Source: Bacillus kwashiorkori
Lineage (GTDB): Bacteria > Bacillota > Bacilli > Bacillales > Caldibacillaceae
Reading direction: 5' to 3'
Length of the DNA stretch: 64,000 nucleotides
Assembly (NCBI RefSeq): GCF_001375515.1
Contig: NZ_CTDX01000012.1
Span: 100,389-164,388 of the forward strand
The position numbers and the translations under genes were made by a program. Shown here one piece after another: positions 1 to 60,685 of this stretch. The notes beneath the pieces are model-generated. The model was not told the origin of the DNA. It searched no databases and saw only the letters and a program-made list of their open reading frames with translations. Within the stretch, counting starts at the first letter, position 1, and every line of letters starts with the position of its first letter.

Positions 1-10
1 TTACAATAAA

Positions 11-276
11 GCTATGTTAAAGATTGGTGTTGATTTCCGTTCCAAATTTATTGGTGACTTAAGCGAATGGACAGGAACAGGCGGACGCTTTCCGCGGGTA
101 CGGCCTCAGCCGCTTCGATGCACCGCGTCTCCTTATTTCTGGCTCGTGCTGTTCCCGCAGGACAAGGAACGCTTCGATAGCTGCGCATTCCACGAAGGAA
201 AAAGCGAATGCTTTTTTCGAGGAGTCACCGCCTGACACTACAATCAACAACTGCCTAAAAATCAACAAAGATAAAC
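11..276 (-). repeat. MITE-like dispersed repeat, copy 1 (long form)
   Basis: This is the reverse-complement copy of an element found five times in the window (19012, 27397, 51554, 60486). It begins GCTATGTTAAAGATTGGTG, which is the 3' inverted end of the element. It then carries the GC-rich core with CAGGCGGACGCTTTCCGC and the AAAAAGC/GCTTTTT hairpin near 200-218. The far end near 276 is decayed and I see no clear target duplication. A 73-codon open frame runs through it, but this is a by-product of the repeat and not a gene. Confidence 0.8.
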
Positions 277-355
277 TTTTACCATTCGGTTTTAATAGGA
301 TAAAATCCGGAAACGGCTTTACTATAGATGTATCGCAATTAAAGGAAGTGGAGTT

Positions 356-790
356 ATGGAAAGGACTGGTTTGCCAGTAAAAATATCATTAAAGACTCAT
401 ATTAATCAAGATGGAGTATATGAAGACTTTGAGTTGATAGTTTTTGGACATTACTATTTAAAGGGTGACTCCCATTATTTAAAGTATGAAGAAGTGACAG
501 ATTCTGGGTCCATACATTCATTAGTGAAAATTTCAGAGAATCGGGTAATGATTTCCCGCAGAGGTGCCGTGAACATGCGCCTAGTGTTAATTCCAGGATA
601 TGAAATGACAGGAACTTTTCAAACGGAACAAGGTACATTTGTATTATCGACAGAAACGAAGGCGATAGAATTTACGAAATTAAGCAATGGACAAGTTGGG
701 CATTTACAATTAAAATATCAATTATTTATGGAGCATATTGATGTCGGTTTATATCAGTTAGACTTCACTTTCAAGGAGGCAAAACAATGA
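356..790 (+). CDS. ywiB: DUF1934 family protein YwiB
   Basis: This 144-residue protein resembles the DUF1934/YwiB family of small calycin-like beta-barrel proteins, whose function is unknown. The sequence is mostly alternating beta-type segments, with no signal peptide or membrane segment. It sits directly upstream of argS, as in other Bacillaceae, and its stop overlaps the argS start by four bases (ATGA), so the two are probably translationally coupled. The ATG at 356 follows a GGAAGTGGAG ribosome binding site. The assignment rests on family resemblance plus conserved neighbourhood; no catalytic residues are known to check. Confidence 0.85.
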
Positions 791-2460
791 ATATTGTAAT
801 GGCAGTAGAGGAAAAGTTAAAATCTGCAATAAAAATGGCATGTATCGCATCCGGTTTAGTAGAGGAAGCCGTCATACCAAATATTATTTTAGAAACACCG
901 AAAGAAAAAGCATTCGGAGATTATTCTACCAATATCGCAATGCAACTAGCGCGTGTTGCTAAAAAAGCACCGCGTCAAATTGCCGAGGCAGTAATTGCGA
1001 ATATAGATAAGCAAAGTGCATCCATTGAAAAAGTAGAAATTGCCGGCCCTGGTTTCATTAATTTTTTCTTGAATAATAGTTATTTGGTGGACTTAATTCC
1101 TACTGTTTTACAGGAGGGGGAAAAGTATGGTCGCACCAATTTTGGCAACGGAGAAAAAATCCAAGTAGAGTTTGTTTCTGCTAATCCTACTGGTGACTTG
1201 CATTTAGGACATGCCCGGGGAGCGGCTGTTGGGGATTCTTTATGTAATATTTTAGATGCAGCTGGGTATGATGTTACTCGGGAGTATTATATTAATGATG
1301 CGGGAAATCAAATTCATAATCTTACTTTGTCAACAGAAGCCCGCTATTTTCAGGCGTTAGGATTGGATAAGCCGATGCCAGAAGATGGATATCATGGTGA
1401 AGATATCATTCAAATAGGAAAAAAATTGGCCGAGGAATACGGGGATAAATATGTCCATGTTAGTGATGAAGAACGATATGAGTTTTTCCGTAAGTATAGT
1501 TTAGCGATTGAAATGGAAAAGTTGAAGACAGATTTAGAAAATTTCCGTGTAAAATTTGATGTATGGTTTAGTGAAACGTCCTTATATGAAAATGGAAAAA
1601 TTGATGAAGCATTACAGGCGCTTCGGGAAAAAGGTCATATATATGAGAAAGACGGGGCAACTTGGTTACAAACGATGCCATTTGGTGATGACAAGGACCG
1701 CGTTTTAATAAAACAAGACGGTACTTATACGTATTTGACACCGGATATTGCTTACCATAAAGATAAGTTTGAGCGTGGCTTTGCGAAAGTAATTAATATT
1801 TGGGGTGCAGACCATCATGGATATATTCCGCGGATGAAAGCTGCAATGGAAGCACTTGGATTTGATCCGAATGCATTAGAAGTGGAAATCATTCAACTCG
1901 TTCATCTGTTTAAAAATGGTGAAAAAATGAAGATGAGTAAAAGAACTGGAAAAGCGGTGACGATGCGCGAGCTTGTCGAAGAAGTTGGTTTAGATGCGGT
2001 TCGCTATTTCTTTGCGATGAGAAGTGCAGATACTCATCTTGATTTTGACCTTGATTTAGCAGTGTCGAAGTCTAATGAAAACCCAGTGTATTACGCTCAA
2101 TACGCCCATGCACGAATATGCAGCATTCTTCGTCAAAGTGAACAGTTAGGAATAGAAGTTCAGGCACAAGATGGGGATTATTCAAGTATAGGAGCAGAGA
2201 AGGAAGTTGATTTACTGAAAAAGCTTGGGGAATATCCGCAAGCAATTGTAGAAGCAGCTGGCAGAAGATCGCCACAGCGGATTACGAACTATATACATGA
2301 ACTAGCTTCTGCCTTCCATAGTTTCTATAATGCAGAAAAAGTGCTCGAAGAAAACAATCTCGTACAAACAAAAGCAAGACTTGGACTAATCAAAACCGTC
2401 CAAATCACGCTAAAAAACGCACTCACCCTAATCGGCGTTGAAGCACCACAACAAATGTAA
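787..2460 (+). CDS. argS: Arginine--tRNA ligase
   Basis: This cytoplasmic class I aminoacyl-tRNA synthetase charges tRNA-Arg. At 557 residues it has the usual bacillar length. The N-terminal Add-1 domain (about 1-110) includes the family segment [14 protein letters not shown]. The catalytic HIGH-type motif is HLGH near residue 139, and the KMSKR loop is intact near residue 382. The C-terminal anticodon-binding helical domain follows. The start at 787 is fixed by AAGGAGG six to seven bases upstream and by the ATGA overlap with ywiB. A GGGGGAC-T-GTCCCCC palindrome begins eight bases after the stop and may act as its 3'-end hairpin. Confidence 0.97.
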
Positions 2461-3932: not shown

Positions 3933-3938
3933 CTAATT

Positions 3939-3972
3939 GGGGACAGTCCCCCACCGCTTTAAAGCGCTAAAG
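3939..3972 (+). repeat. 34-bp palindromic 3'-end repeat (copy R2)
   Basis: The GGGGACAGTCCCC core is followed by CCGCTTTAAAGCGCTAAAG. It matches the complement of 13607-13640 at 33 of 34 positions and 22696-22729 at about 31 of 34. It lies between the permease terminator and the 3' end of the araC-type gene. Confidence 0.85.
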
Positions 3973-3986
3973 TGCGTGCTTTCTGC

Positions 3987-11306: not shown

Positions 11307-13586
11307 ATGTCATGGACAATTAGCAGCAAATCGTTAACGACAGATTCGTTACTTTTAGAAGAAAGTTTATTCTCCCTTGCAAACGGTTTCCTAGGGGTGA
11401 GAGGGAATTTTGAAGAAGGGTATCCAGGACAGTCGGATACAATTAGAGGTACGTATATTAATGCTTTTCACGACGTAGTAGACATTTCATATGGTGAAAA
11501 ATTATATGGATTTCCATCTACTCAACAAAAAATTGTTAACATCATAGACGCACAAACATTAGAGATTTTTCTAGGAGAAGACGAAGAGCGATTCTCTCTT
11601 TTCGAAGGAGAAGTACTAGAGTATGAAAGAAATCTATATTTAAACAAAGGTTTTTTAGAAAGAATCATTCATTGGCGTTCACCAAAAGGAAGAGAAATTA
11701 AACTCACTTTCAACCGACTAGTTTCCTTTGAAAGAAAAGAACTGTTCGCCATTCAGGTGCGAATAGAGCCAATAAACTTCTTTGGTGATGTAAAAATTAT
11801 TTCCACTGTAAATGGCGATGTCACAAATTATGTAAATGAAAATGATCCGAGAGTCGGTTCTGGACATGCGAAACTTTTGAATACATTGGAAGCGAAAGTA
11901 GAACAAGACTATGTAGTTGTAATGAATGAAACATCTAGATCCAATTTGCGAACCGCTTGTATTACTTCCTATGTAATGAATGAGGGCACTCGCAAAGATT
12001 TTATAGAGGAAAGAATAGTTCAAACAGAATGGAAATTTCGTTTGTCAAAACAAGCAGTAATTGAAAAACGAAATGTCTATGTTGATACGTTACGGCACGG
12101 TGAAAATTTAATAGAACAAGGAATTATTTTACAAGATGGACTAAAAAACTACTCTTTTACAGATTTTTTAAAGGAACAAGAGCAATACTTAAATGAGTTT
12201 TGGTCACATGCCAATGTAAAAATTATCGGTGATGAGAAAGTGCAAGAAGGTATTCGCTTTAACTTATACCACTTACTACAATCAGCAGGCAGGGATTCCT
12301 ACTCGAATATTGCAGCTAAAGGTTTATCAGGTGAAGGTTATGAAGGACATTATTTCTGGGATACGGAAATATATATGTTGCCAATCTTCATTATGACTAA
12401 GCCAGACCTTGCTAAACAATTACTTCTCTATCGCTATTCGTTACTTGATCATGCTAGAGAGCGGGCAATAGAGATGGGTCATAAGCAAGGTGCGTTATTC
12501 CCGTGGCGGACGATATCAGGAGGAGAATGTTCTCCATATTTTCCAGCTGGGACTGCTCAGTATCATATTAGTGCGGATATTGCGTACGGCTTTGTTCAAT
12601 ATTATTTGGCGACGGGCGACGAGGAGTTTTTCCACAAATATGTGGCGGAAGTATTGTTTGAAACGGCTCGGCTATGGTTGGAAACAGGACATTTTAAAGA
12701 TGATCAATTCCGGATTGATGATGTGACAGGTCCAGATGAATATACAGCGATTGTGAACAATAATTTTTATACGAATGTGATGGCAAAATATAACTTAAAT
12801 TGGGCTGTGAAAGCATTCGCAAAACTACAAGCGGAAGCCCCTAATTACTTTAAAGAACTTAACGGTCGTCTCCATTTAGAGGAGGCAGAAGTAGAAATGT
12901 GGCAAAAAGCCGCTACAAAGATGTATTTGCCATATGATGAAACATTAGAAATCCATGCACAAGATGATTCATTTTTACAAAAGGCTGTTTGGGATTTTGA
13001 GAATACACCAAAAGACCACTACCCATTGTTACTGCACTATCATCCGCTTACATTGTACCGTTATCAAGTGTGTAAACAAGCAGATACGGTTTTAGCACAT
13101 TTCCTGTTGGAAGATGAGGCAGATTTAGATACAATTAAAAATTCGTATCATTATTATGAAAAAATTACTACCCATGATTCGTCCCTTTCTTCCTGTGTAT
13201 TCAGCATTATGGGTGCGAAAATTGGTGAAATGAATAAGGCATATGAATATTTTATCGAAACAGCTCGCCTTGATTTGGATAATACCCACGGCAATACGAA
13301 AGACGGCTTGCATCTTGCCAATATGGGTGGAACGTGGATGGCAATTGTATTTGGATTTGCTGGACTTCGAATTAAAGAAACGGGAATTTCCTTCTGTCCA
13401 CGCGTACCAGAAAAATGGGACGGTTACGAATGCTCCCTTCAATTTAAAGGACGCGATATAAAACTATTTACTAATAAAGAGTCTGTGACAATCCAAATTA
13501 CCGGTGAACCTTTAGAAATCCATATTTATGATAAAAAATACACCGTAGAAGAAAAATTGTCACTCCCAGTAATTCCTAACATCTAA
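11307..13586 (+). CDS. Glycoside hydrolase family 65 phosphorylase
   Basis: This 759-residue cytoplasmic enzyme has the three-part GH65 build: an N-terminal beta-sandwich (about 1-270), a helical linker and an (alpha/alpha)6 barrel (about 320-690), then a small C-terminal beta domain. The catalytic acid is the Glu of VTGPDEY, residue 478. The segment YEGHYFWDTEIYMLP is also typical. GH65 members phosphorolyse alpha-linked diglucosides (maltose, trehalose, kojibiose or nigerose) to beta-glucose 1-phosphate plus glucose; which one is not decidable here. The frame opens at a GTG at 11298, but CGGAGTG six bases before the ATG at 11307 favours the latter. No beta-phosphoglucomutase gene is adjacent, unlike many GH65 loci. 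Confidence 0.9.
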   Translation: MSWTISSKSLTTDSLLLEESLFSLANGFLGVRGNFEEGYPGQSDTIRGTYINAFHDVVDISYGEKLYGFPSTQQKIVNIIDAQTLEIFLGEDEERFSLFEGEVLEYERNLYLNKGFLERIIHWRSPKGREIKLTFNRLVSFERKELFAIQVRIEPINFFGDVKIISTVNGDVTNYVNENDPRVGSGHAKLLNTLEAKVEQDYVVVMNETSRSNLRTACITSYVMNEGTRKDFIEERIVQTEWKFRLSKQAVIEKRNVYVDTLRHGENLIEQGIILQDGLKNYSFTDFLKEQEQYLNEFWSHANVKIIGDEKVQEGIRFNLYHLLQSAGRDSYSNIAAKGLSGEGYEGHYFWDTEIYMLPIFIMTKPDLAKQLLLYRYSLLDHARERAIEMGHKQGALFPWRTISGGECSPYFPAGTAQYHISADIAYGFVQYYLATGDEEFFHKYVAEVLFETARLWLETGHFKDDQFRIDDVTGPDEYTAIVNNNFYTNVMAKYNLNWAVKAFAKLQAEAPNYFKELNGRLHLEEAEVEMWQKAATKMYLPYDETLEIHAQDDSFLQKAVWDFENTPKDHYPLLLHYHPLTLYRYQVCKQADTVLAHFLLEDEADLDTIKNSYHYYEKITTHDSSLSSCVFSIMGAKIGEMNKAYEYFIETARLDLDNTHGNTKDGLHLANMGGTWMAIVFGFAGLRIKETGISFCPRVPEKWDGYECSLQFKGRDIKLFTNKESVTIQITGEPLEIHIYDKKYTVEEKLSLPVIPNI

Positions 13587-13592
13587 AAAAAA

Positions 13593-13640
13593 ACAGTCCC
13601 CCGCCGCTTTATCGCTTTAAAGCGGTGGGGGACTGTCCCC
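13593..13640. repeat. Palindromic 3'-end repeat (copy R3), shared bidirectional terminator-like hairpin
   Basis: Arms 13593-13611 and 13618-13636 are inverted repeats of 19 bases with one mismatch, with a six-base loop. Positions 13607-13640 are the inverted counterpart of R2 (3939-3972), differing at one of 34 positions. It lies between the convergent GH65 and cls genes, so the hairpin could end transcripts from both sides. A run of A (T on the other strand) flanks it on the left. Confidence 0.8.
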
Positions 13641-13642
13641 AA

Positions 13643-14845
13643 TTATAAAAGTGGTGAAATAATAATGGCGATGAGCTCTTTTAGTTTGCGCCATGGATGG
13701 AAGCCGAAGAGGAGTTTTTCCGGCATTTGGACAGATTTACTTATATCTTTTGCAACAATTGCTTTCATTTGCTCAATAAATTTTTGGTCCCGGAAAAAAC
13801 TGTTCATTTCATGATTTAAATATAAGCTACGCATATCGAAATTAGCCGTCCCAATCGAGCAAACAAAATCATCGATAATAATTAATTTAGCATGATAAAA
13901 ACCATTCTCATATTGAAAAACAACCGCCCCATTTTTCACCAACTTTCGAAAATAACGAAAGGAAGCTTCTTGCACAAAAATATGATCTTGTTTTTTCGGT
14001 ACAATGATCGTCAGCTTCACTCCCCTTTTCAACGCCGTAAGTAACTCATGAAACACTTTTTTTCCTGGAACGAAGTACGGTGTTCCGATAAATATCTCCT
14101 TTTTTGCCTGTCTTAATAAGCGACAATACGTATCTTCTAATTCGACCCCTTCTGATGCATAAAACCGATGATCGACCCTTCCAGCATATAATGGAGGATA
14201 ATAGTCGACTAACGCTGTTAAATCCTTCCCTGTTGCCTCTAACCAATCGATTAAAAATTGATCTTGTAAATCTTTCACCCCTTCACCAACAAACCGAACG
14301 TGGCAATCTCGCCAAGGGGACAAAACATCATCTTCATTAATATATTCCCGTCCAACATTAAAACCACCTAAATAGCCAATTTCCCCATCAATGACCGTAA
14401 TTTTCCGGTGATTTCTTGATTGCAATTTATAAAGGAAAAATGGAAATCGCGGTGTATGACAAAAGGCGACATGAACACCCTTTTTCTGCAATAATTTTAT
14501 TGTTTTTCTAGAAAAACGAAAACTACCAATCCAATCAAGTAAAAGTCGAACTTTCACCCCTTCTTGCACTTTTTTCATTAATAAATCAACAAACTCAGAC
14601 CCAAAATCATCATTGCGGACAATATAAAAAAGTAAATGCACATGATGTTTCGCCTTATCGACATCTTTAAATAAATTTTGAAACAACTGTGGACCAGAAG
14701 TATAAACTAACACATCACTTTTTCTAGAAGGAAATCGCTTTTTTGCTAGATTTTTAATGTGGCTTCTTCTTCCTAAAGCAAAATCCAAATAAACGAAAAA
14801 AATAAAAAGAAGGACAGCAAAAAATATCCACGTGAGCAAACTCAA
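13643..14845 (-). CDS. clsB: Cardiolipin synthase (phospholipase D family)
   Basis: This 400-residue membrane-anchored enzyme joins two phosphatidylglycerol molecules to form cardiolipin. One N-terminal transmembrane helix (about 4-22) is followed by two PLD domains. Their HKD motifs are NHRKITVIDG near residue 146 and YHAKLIIIDD near residue 318, both complete. It corresponds in position and size to YwjE of B. subtilis, next to fadF. The TTG start at 14845 follows AAAGAGGTGG. It is convergent with the GH65 gene and diverges from fadF. Confidence 0.92.
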   Translation of the reverse strand: MSLLTWIFFAVLLFIFFVYLDFALGRRSHIKNLAKKRFPSRKSDVLVYTSGPQLFQNLFKDVDKAKHHVHLLFYIVRNDDFGSEFVDLLMKKVQEGVKVRLLLDWIGSFRFSRKTIKLLQKKGVHVAFCHTPRFPFFLYKLQSRNHRKITVIDGEIGYLGGFNVGREYINEDDVLSPWRDCHVRFVGEGVKDLQDQFLIDWLEATGKDLTALVDYYPPLYAGRVDHRFYASEGVELEDTYCRLLRQAKKEIFIGTPYFVPGKKVFHELLTALKRGVKLTIIVPKKQDHIFVQEASFRYFRKLVKNGAVVFQYENGFYHAKLIIIDDFVCSIGTANFDMRSLYLNHEMNSFFRDQKFIEQMKAIVAKDISKSVQMPEKLLFGFHPWRKLKELIAIIISPLL

Positions 14846-18932: not shown

Positions 18933-19011
18933 GGCTGTTCAAACTTGTTTGTTCAGCCGTTATTCAGTCTTTCTTCGCTAAAAAATTATCTTTCTTTTTT
19001 TTAAAAAGAAT

Positions 19012-19282
19012 GGCTATGTTATTGTTGATTGTTGATTTATAGGTAGTTGTTGACTGTAGTGGAAGGCGGCGACTCCTCGAAAAAAGCATTCGCTTTTTCC
19101 TTCGTGCGATGCGTCGCGGTCGTTGCGTTCCTTACCCTGCGGGAACAGCACGAGCCAGAAATAAGGAAATGCGTAGCGTAGAAGAGGCTGAGGCCGTGCC
19201 CGCGGAAAGCGTCCGCCTGTTCCTGTCGCTGGATTCGTCACAAATAAATTTGAAACGGAAATCAACACCAATCTTCAGCTAG
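19012..19282 (+). repeat. MITE-like dispersed repeat, copy 2 (long form)
   Basis: It begins GGCTATGTTATTG and ends CACCAATCTTCAGCTAG, a slightly decayed form of the usual ATAGCC end. It contains the GAAAAAAGC/GCTTTTTCC hairpin and the GCGGAAAGCGTCCGCCTG core. Flanks AAAGAAT (19005-19011) and AAAGAAT (19284-19290) form a 7-base direct repeat, a likely target duplication. It lies between the thiolase and hbd genes. Confidence 0.85.
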
Positions 19283-19435
19283 GAAAGAATAAAGGGCTAG
19301 TTACGGTCAATGGAATTTTTATGAACAAAGTTTGCAACCAACTCAAACGGAGCTATCAATACAGTGGAAAAGGCTTTTTCAGTGACCTAACTTTTCATAG
19401 GGATTTTTTTAAGAGAAATCATGGGGGGGTTTGAC

Positions 19436-20401: not shown

Positions 20402-21532
20402 ATGATCGAGCAGCTTACTGAAGAACAGCAAATGTTACGAGATATGGTTAGAGAATTTGCTAAAACTGAGATCGCTCCATTCGTAGACAACATGGAAAAA
20501 GGCGAATTTCCCCGTGAAATAGTAAAAAAAATGGGTGAACTCGGTTTAATGGGGATTCCAGTTCCAGAAAGATATGGTGGAGCAGGAATGGACTTTTTAT
20601 CCTATATCATCGCTATTCATGAAATTTCTAAAGTTAGTGCTGCGGTCGGGGTAATTTTATCTGTCCATACATCGGTTGGGACGAATCCAATTTTAACATT
20701 TGGTACGGAAGAACAAAGACAAAAGTATGTTCCGAAATTAGCAAGTGGGGAATATTTAGGCGCCTTTTGTTTAACGGAGGCAACAGCAGGTTCCGATGCT
20801 GCTTCTTTAAAGACGAGGGCAATGAAAGATGGTGACGATTATATTTTAAATGGCAGCAAAATTTTTATTACGAACGGTGGAGAAGCCGACACATACATCG
20901 TCTTTGCGACAGTGAACCCAAATTTGGGCAGTAAGGGAATTACCGCGTTTATTGTGGAAAAAGATACACCGGGCCTCATTATTGGAAAAGATGAAAAGAA
21001 AATGGGGTTGAATGGATCAAGGACGGTCGAGTTAAGTTTTGATCAAATGCGAGTTTCTAAAAGTAGGCGGTTAGGCGAAGAGGGAGAAGGATTTAAAATC
21101 GCAATGGCAAACTTAGATGTCGGCAGAATTGGCATTGCCGCTCAGGCGCTCGGCATTGCAGAAGCGGCTTTCGAGGCAGCACACAACTATGCAAAAGAAC
21201 GAAAACAATTCTCCAAGCCAATTATCGCAAATCAAGGAATTTCTTTTAAACTAGCGGACATGGCGACAAAAATAGAAGCTAGCAAACAATTAATTACTAA
21301 AGCAATCCATTTAAAAATGCAAAACATGGCATGTAGCAAAGAAGCATCGATGGCAAAACTTTTTGCAACAACAACTGCGATGGAAGTTACGACCGAGGCT
21401 ATTCAAATTTTTGGCGGTTACGGCTACACGAAAGAATATCCAGTAGAGCGGTATTTCCGTGATGCTAAAGTAACAGAAATTTATGAAGGAACGAGTGAGA
21501 TTCAGCGGCTTGTAATTAGTAAACGATTATGA
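20402..21532 (+). CDS. Acyl-CoA dehydrogenase (first of tandem pair)
   Basis: This 376-residue FAD-dependent short-chain-type acyl-CoA dehydrogenase has the segments [16 protein letters not shown] (FAD/substrate contact) and [10 protein letters not shown] near the C terminus, which bears the catalytic glutamate of the family. The ORF is open from 20309, but AGGAGGTG seven bases before the ATG at 20402 and family length fix the start. It is about 60% identical by eye to the next gene, so the two are likely old duplicates with different chain-length or branch preference. In B. subtilis the acdA gene occupies this neighbourhood upstream of rpoE. Confidence 0.93.
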
Positions 21533-21559: not shown

Positions 21560-22693
21560 ATGAATTTTAAATTAACTGAAGAACATGAAATGATTCGAAA
21601 AATGGTTCGGGATTTTGCGAAAAATGAAGTAGCACCGACAGCAGCTGAACGGGATGAGGAGGAACGATTTGATCGAGAAATTTTTGATAAAATGGCGGAA
21701 CTCGGCTTAACAGGTATTCCTTGGCCAGAAGAATACGGTGGTATTGGTAGCGACTACTTAGCATATGCGATTGCGGTAGAAGAACTTTCGCGAGTTTGCG
21801 CTTCCACTGGTGTCACGTTATCAGCACACACTTCCCTTGCTGGCTGGCCAGTATATAAATTTGGTACAGAAGAACAGAAACAAAAATATTTAAGACCGAT
21901 GGCGCTTGGCGAAAAAATTGGTGCATACGGCTTAACAGAACCAGGATCCGGATCCGATGCAGGTGGAATGAGAACGACGGCAAGAAAAGAAGGCGATCAC
22001 TATGTGTTGAATGGTTCGAAAATATTTATTACAAATGGCGGTGTCGCTGATATATATATTGTGTTCGCATTAACGGACCCAGAGGCGAAAACTCGTGGAA
22101 CAAGTGCCTTTATTATTGAAAAAGACTTTCCTGGATTTAAAGTTGGGAAAAAAGAAAAAAAGCTCGGTATTCGCTCCTCCCCTACGACAGAGATCATTTT
22201 TGAAGATTGTGTTGTACCACGGGAAAATTTACTTGGTGAAGAAGGGCAAGGTTTTAAAATTGCAATGATGACATTGGATGGAGGCAGAAACGGCATTGCT
22301 GCTCAAGCAGTTGGTATTGCGCAAGGAGCTTTTGACGCTGCGGTTGCCTATGCGAAAGAACGGAAACAGTTTGGTAAACCAATTATTGCCAACCAAGGAA
22401 TTTCCTTTAAACTAGCTGATATGGCAACAAGCATTGAAGCATCGAGACTATTAACCTATCAAGCAGCATGGCTCGAATCTAAAGGACTAGCTTATGGAAA
22501 AGAGTCAGCCATGTCCAAACTAATGGCTGGTGACACAGCAATGAAAGTAACGACAGAAGCAGTCCAAATCTTTGGTGGTTACGGCTACACGAAAGAATAC
22601 CCAGTAGAACGTTACATGCGTGACGCCAAAATCACCCAAATATATGAAGGCACTCAAGAAATCCAGCGCCTCGTCATCTCCCGCATGATTTAA
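21560..22693 (+). CDS. Acyl-CoA dehydrogenase (second of tandem pair)
   Basis: This 377-residue acyl-CoA dehydrogenase has [17 protein letters not shown] for flavin/substrate contact and [16 protein letters not shown] at the C terminus with the catalytic glutamate. It starts at an ATG after GAGGAGG, 27 bases behind the first paralogue, so both are on one message. Electrons would pass to ETF (not present here) and on to FadF. A 34-bp palindromic repeat follows the stop by two bases. Confidence 0.93.
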
Positions 22694-22695
22694 AA

Positions 22696-22729
22696 GGGGA
22701 CAGTCCCCCACTACGTTAAAGCGCTAAAG
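22696..22729 (+). repeat. 34-bp palindromic 3'-end repeat (copy R4)
   Basis: The GGGGACAGTCCCC core is followed by a TTAAAGCGCTAAAG tail and differs from R2 (3939) at about three of 34 positions. It starts two bases after the acyl-CoA dehydrogenase stop codon and ends 12 bases before the regulator's start, so it may contribute its upstream context. Confidence 0.8.
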
Positions 22730-22741
22730 TGAGGTGGTTGT

Positions 22742-27396: not shown

Positions 27397-27572
27397 GGCT
27401 ATGTTATTGTTTATTTTTGGCAGTTGTTGATTGTAGTGCAAGGCAGCGGCTCCGGCGAGAACAGCACGAGCCGAAGACCATACAAACACGTAGCGTCGAA
27501 GCGGCTAAGGCCGTGCCCGCGGAAAGCGTCCGCCTGTTCCTGTCGATTCGCTTAGCAATCTATAACATAGCC
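27397..27572 (+). repeat. MITE-like dispersed repeat, copy 3 (short form)
   Basis: Its ends are GGCTATGTTAT and ATAACATAGCC, a perfect 11-base terminal inverted repeat. The core retains TTGTTGATTGTAGTG and GCGGAAAGCGTCCGCCTG but lacks the GAAAAAAGC/GCTTTTT hairpin of copies 1, 2 and 4. Flanks ATAATATA and ACTATATA agree at six of eight positions and may be a decayed target duplication. It ends 40 bases before the rpoE start. Confidence 0.85.
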
Positions 27573-37672: not shown

Positions 37673-37822
37673 AAGTATTGGCGATAATTGCTAACAATCT
37701 TGAATCAATCAAATATTGCATTTCATTTCATGCCTTGTTATAATAATAACAGTGTTTTTTAAATGAGTATGATTATAATAGATTAACTCTGTTTCAAAAT
37801 GATTCAGGGCAAAAGGAGTTGA

Positions 37823-41010: not shown

Positions 41011-41246
41011 ACAATTAATTCATGAATAGAAAGAAGAGGTAATGGCGGGTACAACGCGAGACGGAGGGCTTACAAAGGTTGCGATACACTATTGTCCATT
41101 ACATGTTTAACGGCAAGCTCCAACCCCGAATTTTAGAATAGTTGTTTAGTGAGGCGGCCCGAGGACTAACCAAGGGCCCCTTAACATTTATGGCTCTTCG
41201 CTATTTAGTGTGGGTATAAAAGAATCTCGGACCATAATAAGTGGTA

Positions 41247-41356
41247 AGCTCCTTCTCAACTTTTGATAGTTTTCCATTTTACGGGGAGGCTGTCAAGGAA
41301 AGCACTTGACAACCTCCCCGTAAAATGGAGCTGGGTCTGTAAGTTGAGAAGGACCT
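41247..41356 (-). terminator. Nested inverted repeat at the 3' end of the transposase gene
   Basis: The outer arms 41247-41262 and 41341-41356 pair with 14 of 16 matches. The inner arms 41274-41297 and 41305-41328 pair with 23 of 24 around a seven-base loop. The structure begins at the transposase stop codon and could terminate or insulate transcription across the element. Confidence 0.75.
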
Positions 41357-42641
41357 ACCCTAGCTTATGTGGTTCTACACTAATCAATAACTTATTAGCT
41401 GTTGCGTAGATCATCGCAATAAAGTTCTTTGTGGTTCTGTAGCCCCTAGCTTTTCTCTTTGCAGCTTGAACTAGACTATTGATACCTTCGAGTAGACCAT
41501 TAGTCATTTTTGAAACGAACCATCTTAATATCCCTTGTTCGTGTTTCTTTAATGTTTGGGCAACCTTTATTATTGGTTCTAACTGAGAACGGGTGGCCCA
41601 TTGGTACCACTCATTAAAATGAAGGGTGGCAAAGCGTTCAGTTTTGGTCCACATTTCTTGAAGCGAAAGCTTCAATCTATAAGCTCTAGCTGTTTTTAAA
41701 TTGGTATCCTTTAATTTTAGGATCTTTTCCTGTTGTTCGGTGTTTAGATTTTTATGGTTTTTTAACCATAAATAACGTGTCTTTTTAAGGCCTGGTTGTT
41801 CAATTTGCTCATTGCGTCGTACCTGATCTAGCGCCTCATTCATAAGTTTCATGACATGAAATTTATCAAAGGTTATGTGTGCTTCTGGAAATTCTGTTTC
41901 GACACCCTTTTTGAATGCTGGGGACATATCACTACAGACTTCTTTAATGTTATTAGGCTCAACATTATGATCCTTTAAGAAGGAAGAAAATTTTTTAAGA
42001 ACATTCGCGTCTTTTCCTTCTGTAGCGAATAAAACAAGCTTTGTATCCATATCTACAAACAGAGTGACATATTCATGTCCTCGCCGGCTAGATGTCTCAT
42101 CAATGGCTATTCGCTTAACATTGGAAAAGTCCAATTCTTTCATGGCTTTATCAACATAATAATGAAAGACACGCCACAACCTAGTATCATGTTCACCTAC
42201 TTTTCGGGCCACTGTAGCAACGGGCATTTCTTTCATTAATTGCATTAATTCAGATTCAAAAAACCATGTAAACCCAGCACCAGGGCGAGACCATTCTACA
42301 TGAATGGTACGAATCTTATTACAAAGATTACATTTTGTTCGAGGCAATCTTGCGTGTAAGATGGTTTGATACTGCCAGAAATTAAGGTGCCTCCACGTAC
42401 GATCATCATTTACTATGTCATGAACTTTTGCCTGAGGATGACCACAATGAGTGCATACAAATTCAGAACCACGTCTAAAATCTAAATAAATATCAAGAAT
42501 ATAATCATTTTGGTTCAATTCGTAATCAATAACATACCATGGATCTTCAATACCTAATGCCTTTTGGAACACACTATATTCTTGGTTAAAATCTCTCATT
42601 TTGGGCCACCTCGGATAATAATATTTTAATTTATTATCCAT
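41355..42641 (-). CDS. ISL3 family transposase
   Basis: This 428-residue DDE transposase has N-terminal zinc-ribbon cysteines (CTHCGH and CNLCNK) and a helix-turn-helix. The catalytic domain has first acidic residues in IAIDETSSRRGHEYVTL, the second in VCSDMSPAFKKG with the FDKFHVMKLMNEALD segment, and Glu in NGLLEGINSLVQ. It is full length and uninterrupted, so probably active. The ATG at 42641 is about 50 bases inside the right end. Confidence 0.95.
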   Translation of the reverse strand: MDNKLKYYYPRWPKMRDFNQEYSVFQKALGIEDPWYVIDYELNQNDYILDIYLDFRRGSEFVCTHCGHPQAKVHDIVNDDRTWRHLNFWQYQTILHARLPRTKCNLCNKIRTIHVEWSRPGAGFTWFFESELMQLMKEMPVATVARKVGEHDTRLWRVFHYYVDKAMKELDFSNVKRIAIDETSSRRGHEYVTLFVDMDTKLVLFATEGKDANVLKKFSSFLKDHNVEPNNIKEVCSDMSPAFKKGVETEFPEAHITFDKFHVMKLMNEALDQVRRNEQIEQPGLKKTRYLWLKNHKNLNTEQQEKILKLKDTNLKTARAYRLKLSLQEMWTKTERFATLHFNEWYQWATRSQLEPIIKVAQTLKKHEQGILRWFVSKMTNGLLEGINSLVQAAKRKARGYRTTKNFIAMIYATANKLLISVEPHKLG

Positions 42642-42694
42642 TATGGTCTTACCTAGGAATCTTTAAACCAATACTATCTAGCGAGGAAGCACAT

Positions 42695-51522: not shown

Positions 51523-51553
51523 AGCTGAACAGGGAGAACATATTTAAATTAAT

Positions 51554-51825
51554 GGCTATGTTGTTTGATGGTGATTTTTAAGCAGTTGTTGATTGTAGTG
51601 TAAGGCGGCGACTCCTCAAAAAAGCATTCGCTTTTTCCTTCGTGCGATGTGTCGCGGCCGTTGCGTTCCTTGTCCTGCGGGAACAGCACGAGCCAGAAAT
51701 AACGAGACGCGTAGTGTTGAAGCGGCAGAGGCCGTGCCCGTGGAAAGCGTCCGCCTGTCCCTGTCGCTGCGATTTCGTCACAAATAAATTTGGAACGGAA
51801 ATCAACACCAATCTTTAATATAGCC
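51554..51825 (+). repeat. MITE-like dispersed repeat, copy 4 (long form, with target duplication)
   Basis: Its ends are GGCTATGTTG and TTAATATAGCC, flanked by a perfect 8-base direct repeat AAATTAAT (51546-51553 and 51826-51833). It contains the GAAAAAAGC/GCTTTTT-type hairpin near 51615 and the GGAAAGCGTCCGCCTG core. This is the clearest evidence that the family moved by transposition. Confidence 0.92.
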
Positions 51826-51840
51826 AAATTAATAAAAGAT

Positions 51841-60485: not shown

Positions 60486-60685
60486 GGCTATGTTATTGTT
60501 TATTCTTGAATTTTAGGCAGTTGTTGATTGTAGTGTAAGGCGGTGACTCGGGCGGAACAGCATGAGCTAGAAATAAGGAGACGCGTAGCATCGAAGCGGC
60601 CGAGACCGTGCCCGCGAAAAAGAGTCCGCCTGTTTCTTCGCTACGCTTTCGTCAACGAAAATCAACACCAATCTTTAGCATAGCC
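60486..60685 (+). repeat. MITE-like dispersed repeat, copy 5 (short form) inside the atp operon
   Basis: Its ends are GGCTATGTTATTG and CTTTAGCATAGCC. TTGTTGATTGTAGTG and a degenerate GAGTCCGCCTG core are kept, but the GAAAAAAGC/GCTTTTT hairpin block present in the long copies is absent. It lies 45 bases after the atpG stop and 181 bases before the atpD start. I find no target duplication. Confidence 0.88.

What the first reader, a model, noticed from the sequence alone, without database searches (positions are those of the whole stretch)
51546..51833. Five-copy MITE-like family with inverted ends and 8-bp target duplication
Elements at 11-276 (complement), 19012-19282, 27397-27572, 51554-51825 and 60486-60685 share GGCTATGTTA-type ends and a GC-rich core. 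Copy 4 is bounded by a perfect 8-base duplication AAATTAAT and copy 2 by a 7-base AAAGAAT. Copy 3 has an 11-base perfect terminal inverted repeat. They have no transposase, so this is a non-autonomous element that has spread between housekeeping genes. One copy per about 13 kb implies hundreds per genome.
Basis: seen in the sequence. Interest (0 to 1): 0.75.

Follow-up and report, generated by a model that had tools for sequence, protein, structure and literature searches.

The report
Miniature transposon carrying a conserved hairpin
Five copies of a short element in this window are miniature transposons without their own enzyme, likely moved by the enzyme of an IS1595-type jumping gene present elsewhere in the same genome, and their core belongs to a family of sequences, predicted to fold into a hairpin, that turns up whole or in part in more than half of the sampled genomes of the same bacterial order, lying more often in the sense than in the antisense direction of neighbouring genes, which would fit a role in RNA.

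Summary
The five copies are at the stated coordinates, with AAATTAAT duplicated around copy 4 and AAAGAAT around copy 2. Two points fail. Copy 1 lies in a 2,330-bp exact duplication around a single N (probable assembly artefact). This genome has 38 matching loci (37 distinct), not hundreds, although 4 of 12 relatives tested exceed 130.

The element is a MITE. Of 19 own-genome copies with both ends, 12 have 8-bp flanks matching at 7 or more positions, against 3 of 342 mispaired flanks. Its ends match an intact IS1595-family element in the same genome (22 and 24 of 29 bases, same 8-bp duplication). The ISL3 element inside the window does not match. A precise empty site was found for the same MITE type in another genus.

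Two alignments (60 and 49 cores) show compensatory changes at 23 of 43 and 27 of 44 pairs. G·T outnumbers A·C, and cores are co-directional with flanking genes 44:15. The core also sits in other end types and without any recognised shell. A sense-strand RNA element spread by MITEs is inferred. The window's own cores are decayed.

The parts
51546..51553 (.). left target duplication of copy 4 (AAATTAAT)
51554..51825 (+). MITE copy 4, 272 bp; ends GGCTATGTT / AATATAGCC
   Evidence: 90% identical over about 267 bases to copy 2
51826..51833 (.). right target duplication of copy 4 (AAATTAAT)
51616..51672 (+). extra module (about 57 bp) splitting the core of copy 4; absent from short copies and from the core in the 30 seed sequences of other genomes
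   Evidence: piece boundaries 70/128 of the query; cores of 124-130 bp elsewhere
51758..51793 (+). second extra module (about 36 bp) in copy 4
   Evidence: piece boundaries 212/249 of the query
19012..19282 (+). MITE copy 2; right end damaged; 7-bp duplication AAAGAAT at 19005-19011 and 19284-19290
   Evidence: core model hit 19049-19230
27397..27572 (+). MITE copy 3, 176 bp, 11-bp perfect terminal inverted repeat
   Evidence: core model hit 27426-27547, E 2e-15
60486..60685 (+). MITE copy 5, inside the spacer between the atpG-like and atpD-like genes
   Evidence: core model hit 60523-60644
11..276 (-). MITE copy 1, left end truncated; duplicated by the assembly
   Evidence: core model hit 89-162

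Best explanation
The copies are miniature inverted-repeat elements whose terminal sequences and 8-bp target duplications match those of an IS1595-family (Merlin-related) insertion sequence in the same genome, so they were most likely moved in trans by an IS1595-family transposase, and they carry a GC-rich core that belongs to an order-wide covarying family predicted to fold as a hairpin, which would act, if at all, in the sense RNA strand. Shown: ends, duplications, partner IS, an empty site in a relative, compensatory changes, strand bias. Inferred: that the transposase binds these ends in trans. Inferred too: that the hairpin is maintained because copies transcribed in sense orientation are tolerated or useful (for instance as a folded spacer in untranslated RNA), and that this lets the element persist and be re-packaged in other transposon ends. 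In this genome the window's cores are decayed, so here the element is mainly a relic of past transposition.
For: Own-genome IS1595 (L138 966-2420, 1,455 bp): open 342-aa transposase, NF033547 212 bits with cut-off 75, PF12762 and a zinc ribbon; flanks AAAATAAA/AAAATAAA. Ungapped identity over 29 terminal bases, with representative MITE ends typed from own copies: MITE left vs IS right 24/29, MITE right vs IS right 22/29 (vs IS left 21 and 20); MITE vs window ISL3 ends 10-11/29, chance level. Of 8 IS1595 elements with both ends located, 6 have 8/8 flank duplication, the others 5/8 and 6/8. Own MITE duplications: 12 of 19 versus 3 of 342. Empty site: G285 has a 183-bp element between ATTTTTAA copies; G195 has one ATTTTTAA, and the joined flanks align with it over 316 bases at 93% without a gap; G242 and G220 align through the same junction with small gaps at about 83%. 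Core: 43 pairs, 93.4% of cells paired, 23 pairs with double changes, 0 of 500 shuffles on all five measures (A1); 44 pairs, 95.2%, 27 double changes, 0 of 500 (A2; no sequence shared with A1). G·T 50 vs A·C 20 (A1) and 28 vs 6 (A2). Tandem gene contexts: co-directional 44, opposite 15, of 106 loci.
Against: 7 of 19 own copies lack a clear duplication. Only 7 of 19 genomes tested hold a PF12762 gene, so the partner is often absent now. Some own copies end in a different long end (GGCTACCCTGAAAATA...) that does not resemble the IS1595 ends, and its transposase was not found. Fold energies of the window cores of copies 3 and 5 are no better than shuffles (z -0.4 to -1.1 on either strand), and in the better own copy L028 both strands fold well (z -3.0 and -3.3), so energies do not single out a strand and no RNA role is supported for these very copies. 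My scan found IS1595-type ends in 41 of 80 core places; 39 had other or no recognised ends, so IS1595 does not explain the spread of the core everywhere. Strand bias in the own genome alone is 14:6, not significant; the 44:15 count pools several loci per genome. The pair counts are not corrected for relatedness. The empty site is from another genus, and in three of six relatives (G119, G090, G146) the site is not a clean one.
Confidence: 0.88

Rival explanations
1. The MITE is driven by the ISL3-family element that lies in the same window (41192-42690) and in three more copies of the genome.
For: ISL3 copy in the window with a GGCT start and an 8-bp duplication ACATTTAT; ISL3 transposase 334 bits.
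Against: Beyond GGCT the ends agree at chance level; 12 of 16 genomes chosen for strong MITE matches have no PF01610 gene.
Confidence: 0.03
2. The arms of the core match because replication errors on quasi-palindromes copy one arm onto the other (mutational bias), not because the folded RNA or single strand is selected.
For: The element is a long imperfect inverted repeat, the substrate for such template switching (recalled mechanism). Control (b) of the pair counts favours any structure derived from the alignment, and relatedness is not corrected for.
Against: Such correction should be strand-symmetric, yet G·T exceeds A·C 50:20 and 28:6; conserved unpaired positions persist inside the stem; cores are co-directional with genes 44:15.
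Confidence: 0.2
3. The core is a chromosomal small-RNA or cis-regulatory family, of which Rfam's S. aureus tsr24 is a relative, and the transposon ends are incidental.
For: tsr24 matches below its gathering score in 3 of 9 core loci (E 3e-4 to 0.72) and in 6 of 6, two of which were chosen because they had matched before; best E 3.3e-5 over model positions 1-238 in L148. Cores without recognised ends occur.
Against: Every match is below the gathering score of 50 (best 35.7). The ends and duplications show that many copies moved as transposons. Copy number (136 or more in 4 of 12 genomes) is too high for one gene-like RNA.
Confidence: 0.15

Closest known systems
IS1595 family insertion sequences (bacterial relatives of Merlin)
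   Same: 8-bp target duplication and matching terminal repeats. Passages read from PMC8101967 give 8-bp duplications, a zinc finger and a DDE domain for the IS1595 family, and terminal GG for its eukaryotic Merlin relatives.
   Different: No transposase; own copies 96-325 bp; interior unrelated to the IS.
bcr1-bcr18 repeats of the Bacillus cereus group
   Same: Short repeats with mobile features in a related group (passages of PMC6542083).
   Different: The passages describe the first BCR element as restricted to that group and tie mobility to TTTAT motifs; this family matches in 74 of 116 sampled genera and uses IS1595-type ends with 8-bp duplications. The bcr1 sequence itself was not compared.
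Rfam RF02577, S. aureus tsr24 small RNA
   Same: The core aligns to model positions about 129-205, in one locus 1-238.
   Different: All matches below the gathering score; Rfam files tsr24 as a small RNA, not as a mobile repeat.
Enterobacterial RU-type small mobile repeats
   Same: Similar idea: MITE-like intergenic repeats of 103-168 bp (start of the abstract of PMC2759123 seen in the listing).
   Different: Another lineage; no sequence comparison made.

Membership tests
IS1595-related MITE | terminal repeats shared with an IS1595 element | tested here: met
   22-24 of 29 bases with the own-genome IS right end
IS1595-related MITE | 8-bp target duplication | tested here: met
   12 of 19 own copies at 7/8 or better vs 3 of 342
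IS1595-related MITE | no transposase inside, partner IS present | tested here: met
   elements of 96-325 bp; open 342-aa transposase at L138
IS1595-related MITE | empty sites with one target copy | tested here: met
   for a sister copy in G285: clean in G195, with small gaps in G242 and G220; not testable at the window's own loci
IS1595-related MITE | mobilisation in trans | not testable with these tools
   needs an assay
ISL3-related MITE | terminal repeats shared with an ISL3 element | tested here: not met
   10-11/29, chance
Rfam tsr24 | score at or above the gathering score of 50 | tested here: not met
   best 35.7 bits
structured RNA | compensatory changes beyond shuffled controls | tested here: met
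   relatedness of the sequences not corrected for
structured RNA | the window's own copies fold better than shuffles | tested here: not met
   z -0.4 to -1.1 for copies 3 and 5, either strand (copies 1, 2 and 4 not folded); own copy L028 z about -3

The most novel reading that the evidence does not exclude
The 127-bp core is a mobile structured RNA in its own right. It is a sense-oriented hairpin family spread across the Bacillales order, with well over a hundred copies in some genomes, that has been packaged in several transposon ends (two IS1595 subgroups, a GGCTACCC type, a GGGGCTGTCC type) and also spreads without any recognised shell, so that selection on RNA rather than on any one transposase keeps it alive.
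Probability: 0.33. Interest if true: 0.82.

Novelty: new variant of a known kind. Interest (0 to 1): 0.6.

Why it matters
MITEs are usually read as decaying transposon debris with a dispensable interior. Here the interior is the conserved part: the same hairpin family, with compensatory changes and a coding-strand bias, sits inside different transposon ends over an order of well-studied bacteria. If it acts in RNA, it would be one of the commonest untranslated structures in some of these genomes. I saw no paper on it among the results listed by the searches (several list only part of what they found; subscription journals are mostly not held), and a 14-base core string, typed on both strands, occurs in none of the held full texts.

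Tried and rejected
ISL3 as partner: tested and dropped. Replication-strand orientation as the cause of the strand bias: 83 vs 67 of the 150 matches listed, assuming records start at the origin and using partly rounded genome lengths; no bias seen. Orthologous empty sites at the window's own copies: the closest named relative found, Fervidibacillus halotolerans (AtpG 77% identical), shows no element in the atpG-atpD spacer or in the 160 bases after upp, but is too diverged to show the target sequence. Autonomous element with the long GGCTACCC end: not found; end fragments lie at contig ends or beside no transposase ORF. Promoter or terminator content of copies 4 and 5: 2 promoter-like and 1 terminator-like site in each region, shuffles 1.0-1.3 and 0.6. 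Phage carriage: no match. Plasmid carriage: 9 records, 7 of them matching only about query positions 57-187, i.e. the core without the shell. A 1,566-bp 'plasmid' record matched by copy 4 is annotated as linear with one gene. Rfam at gathering score on the window: only an L31 leader. The label IS1182-like, which I first gave in my notes to the GGGGCTGTCC shell, is recalled and was not tested.

Full report
OBSERVATION. All five stated copies are present. Copy 4 is flanked by AAATTAAT on both sides and copy 2 by AAAGAAT. With the copy 4 region as query the genome gives 56 matching pieces in 38 loci, many of them fragments. One is a duplicate: 2,330 identical bases, including copy 1, lie on both sides of a single N at the left edge of the window. 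That leaves 37 distinct loci in 2.78 Mb (80% complete), not hundreds. Eight further places carry the long end described below with at most a remnant of the rest.

MITE. I located both ends of 19 own copies and compared the 8 bases on either side: 12 of 19 agree at 7 or 8 positions, against 3 of 342 mispaired flanks, and 0 of 10,000 permutations reached 12. The 7 misses are copies 3 and 5 of the window, L013, L016, L025, L033 and L039. Own loci whose ends could not both be placed were left out of this count. No transposase gene lies inside.

PARTNER. The window has an ISL3 element (41192-42690, minus strand, ACATTTAT on both sides), one of four near-identical copies. Its ends agree with the MITE only in GGCT; the rest is at chance. 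The one PF12762 match of the own genome, an IS1595-family element in contig 11 (L138 966-2420), fits instead. Its 342-aa transposase frame is open (NF033547, 212 bits), it is flanked by AAAATAAA twice, and its right end agrees with representative MITE left and right ends at 24 and 22 of 29 bases. Of 8 IS1595 elements with both ends located, this one included, 6 have a perfect 8-base duplication and two have 5/8 and 6/8; seven have GGCTCTGTTA-like ends and one (L389) a GGCTGTTTTC type. An 8-bp duplication and a zinc finger are described for the family, terminal GG for its Merlin relatives (passages of PMC8101967). PF12762 was found in 7 of 19 genomes and 5 of 10, so many carriers have lost the partner or hold it outside the assembly.

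EMPTY SITE. For a 183-bp sister element in genome G285, six other genomes of its genus were searched. In G195 the joined flanks align over 316 bases at 93% without a gap, with one ATTTTTAA. In G242 and G220 the joined flanks also align through the junction, at about 83% with small gaps, again with one ATTTTTAA. In G119 the left flank ends in one ATTTTTAA but other sequence follows. G090 and G146 have TATTTTTAG there and diverge after it. No second genome of the window's genus is held.

TWO END TYPES. Several own copies have a longer end, GGCTACCCTGAAAATACAGC..., that extends about 60 bp beyond the short end. Four hybrid copies, one long and one short end, have 7/8 duplications (L014, L017, L022, L023); two more hybrids do not (L016 4/8, L033 5/8). 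So both ends seem to have served in one transposition. The 16-base long-end pattern occurs in 16 of 397 genomes of the order (reversed control 0 in each listed genome), up to 53 times in one. One genome has a hybrid with ttttttaa twice, another a 32-bp element of two ends only, with ttcattaa twice. Its transposase was not found. This is unexplained.

CORE. A search of 299 genomes of the order with the short element L028 gave matches in 174, in 74 of 116 genera; only the two best candidates of each genome were scored. Most of the listed matches cover the GC-rich interior. It is a unit of 124-130 bp in 30 seed copies, from GTTGATT to AATCAAC. Of 80 fetched places, my scan, which scores end and duplication together and so favours duplications, assigned IS1595-type ends to 41; 39 had other or no recognised ends. 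Some of those have GGGGCTGTCC-type ends (G003, G005). A GGCTnTTTTC...GATTGTTGC type, seen around cores of G250, resembles the ends of another IS1595 element (L389, duplication 8/8). In the 20 fetched loci of G232 the unit has no shell that I recognise. With the covariance model R1, 4 of 12 one-contig genomes have 136-150 matches (150 is the scoring cap) and the other 8 have 12-67.

STRUCTURE. On 60 cores (A1) the predicted fold has 43 pairs, 93.4% of cells paired, 23 pairs with changes on both sides, and none of 500 shuffles as good on any measure. A second set of 49 cores (A2), aligned and folded apart and sharing no sequence with A1, gives 44 pairs, 95.2% and 27. One example is the GTTGCTT/AAGCAAC ends of G232 against GTTGATT/AATCAAC elsewhere. 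Relatedness is not corrected for. Among well-paired columns G·T outnumbers A·C 50 to 20 and 28 to 6, which points to one strand. On that strand the core is co-directional with both neighbours in 44 loci and opposite in 15, of 106 loci examined (15 convergent, 29 divergent, 3 undetermined; genes called as ORFs of 80 aa or more; several loci per genome). The own genome alone gives 14:6. Around atpG in 80 named genomes, 25 model matches fall in 14 loci, 23 on the atpG strand and 2 on the other; 6 of them are tandem copies in one locus, and flanking genes were not annotated one by one. Along whole chromosomes no replication-strand bias is visible (83 vs 67).

LIMITS. The window's own cores are decayed or split by inserted modules; copies 3 and 5 do not fold better than shuffles on either strand, and in the better own copy L028 both strands fold well. 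An RNA role is therefore not supported for the window copies, and fold energy does not single out a strand. Copy 5 sits between atpG-like and atpD-like genes, where 80 relatives have spacers of 25-426 bp (median 89.5; window 426, equal to the largest).

KNOWN RNA. Rfam's tsr24 (an S. aureus small RNA) matches the core below its gathering score in 3 of 9 sources and in 6 of 6 (two of those six chosen); the best match is end to end (35.7 bits against 50, E 3.3e-5). I found no paper on tsr24, and none on this repeat among the listed results. Of papers I saw search listings, and passages of PMC2267715, PMC8101967 and PMC6542083. PMC2267715 lists two repeat families in B. halodurans (Bhal-1, Bhal-2) that I did not compare.

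VERDICT. A real MITE family of the IS1595 group: the kind is known. The new part is its conserved, covarying, sense-biased hairpin core, shared by different transposon ends across an order.

Noticed in passing
window 41192-42690 (-): ISL3-family insertion sequence, 428-aa transposase, flanked by ACATTTAT twice; four copies at least 99.5% identical in the genome, one of them starting 14 bp from the right end of a MITE copy (L018).
   Followed up: yes
window 1-2330: Exact 2,330-bp duplicate of the sequence just before the window, separated by a single N: probable assembly artefact.
   Followed up: yes
window 3934-3974, 13584-13650, 22691-22731: Another small repeat with GGGGACAGTCCCC palindromes.
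   Followed up: no
window 21374-21516 and 22535-22677: 143-bp direct repeat, 76% identical, 1,161 bp apart.
   Followed up: no
window 37787-37818: L31-Firmicutes ribosomal protein leader (Rfam RF03156).
   Followed up: no
L226, L228, L254 (atpG-atpD spacer): A different repeat (GAAAAGCGGAAGCGCC-like) occupies the same atpG-atpD spacer in other Bacillaceae.
   Followed up: no
L014, L016, L017, L022, L023, L359, L380: Second, longer end type GGCTACCCTGAAAATA, used in hybrid with short ends; transposase unknown.
   Followed up: partly
window 51616-51672; L076, L082: A hairpin module (TCAAAAAAGCATTCGCTTTTTCCTTCGTGCGATG...) is inserted into the core; similar modules occur in tandem in genome G003.
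   Followed up: no
L138 2144-2308: Small membrane-protein-like ORF downstream of the transposase inside the IS1595 element (possible passenger gene).
   Followed up: no
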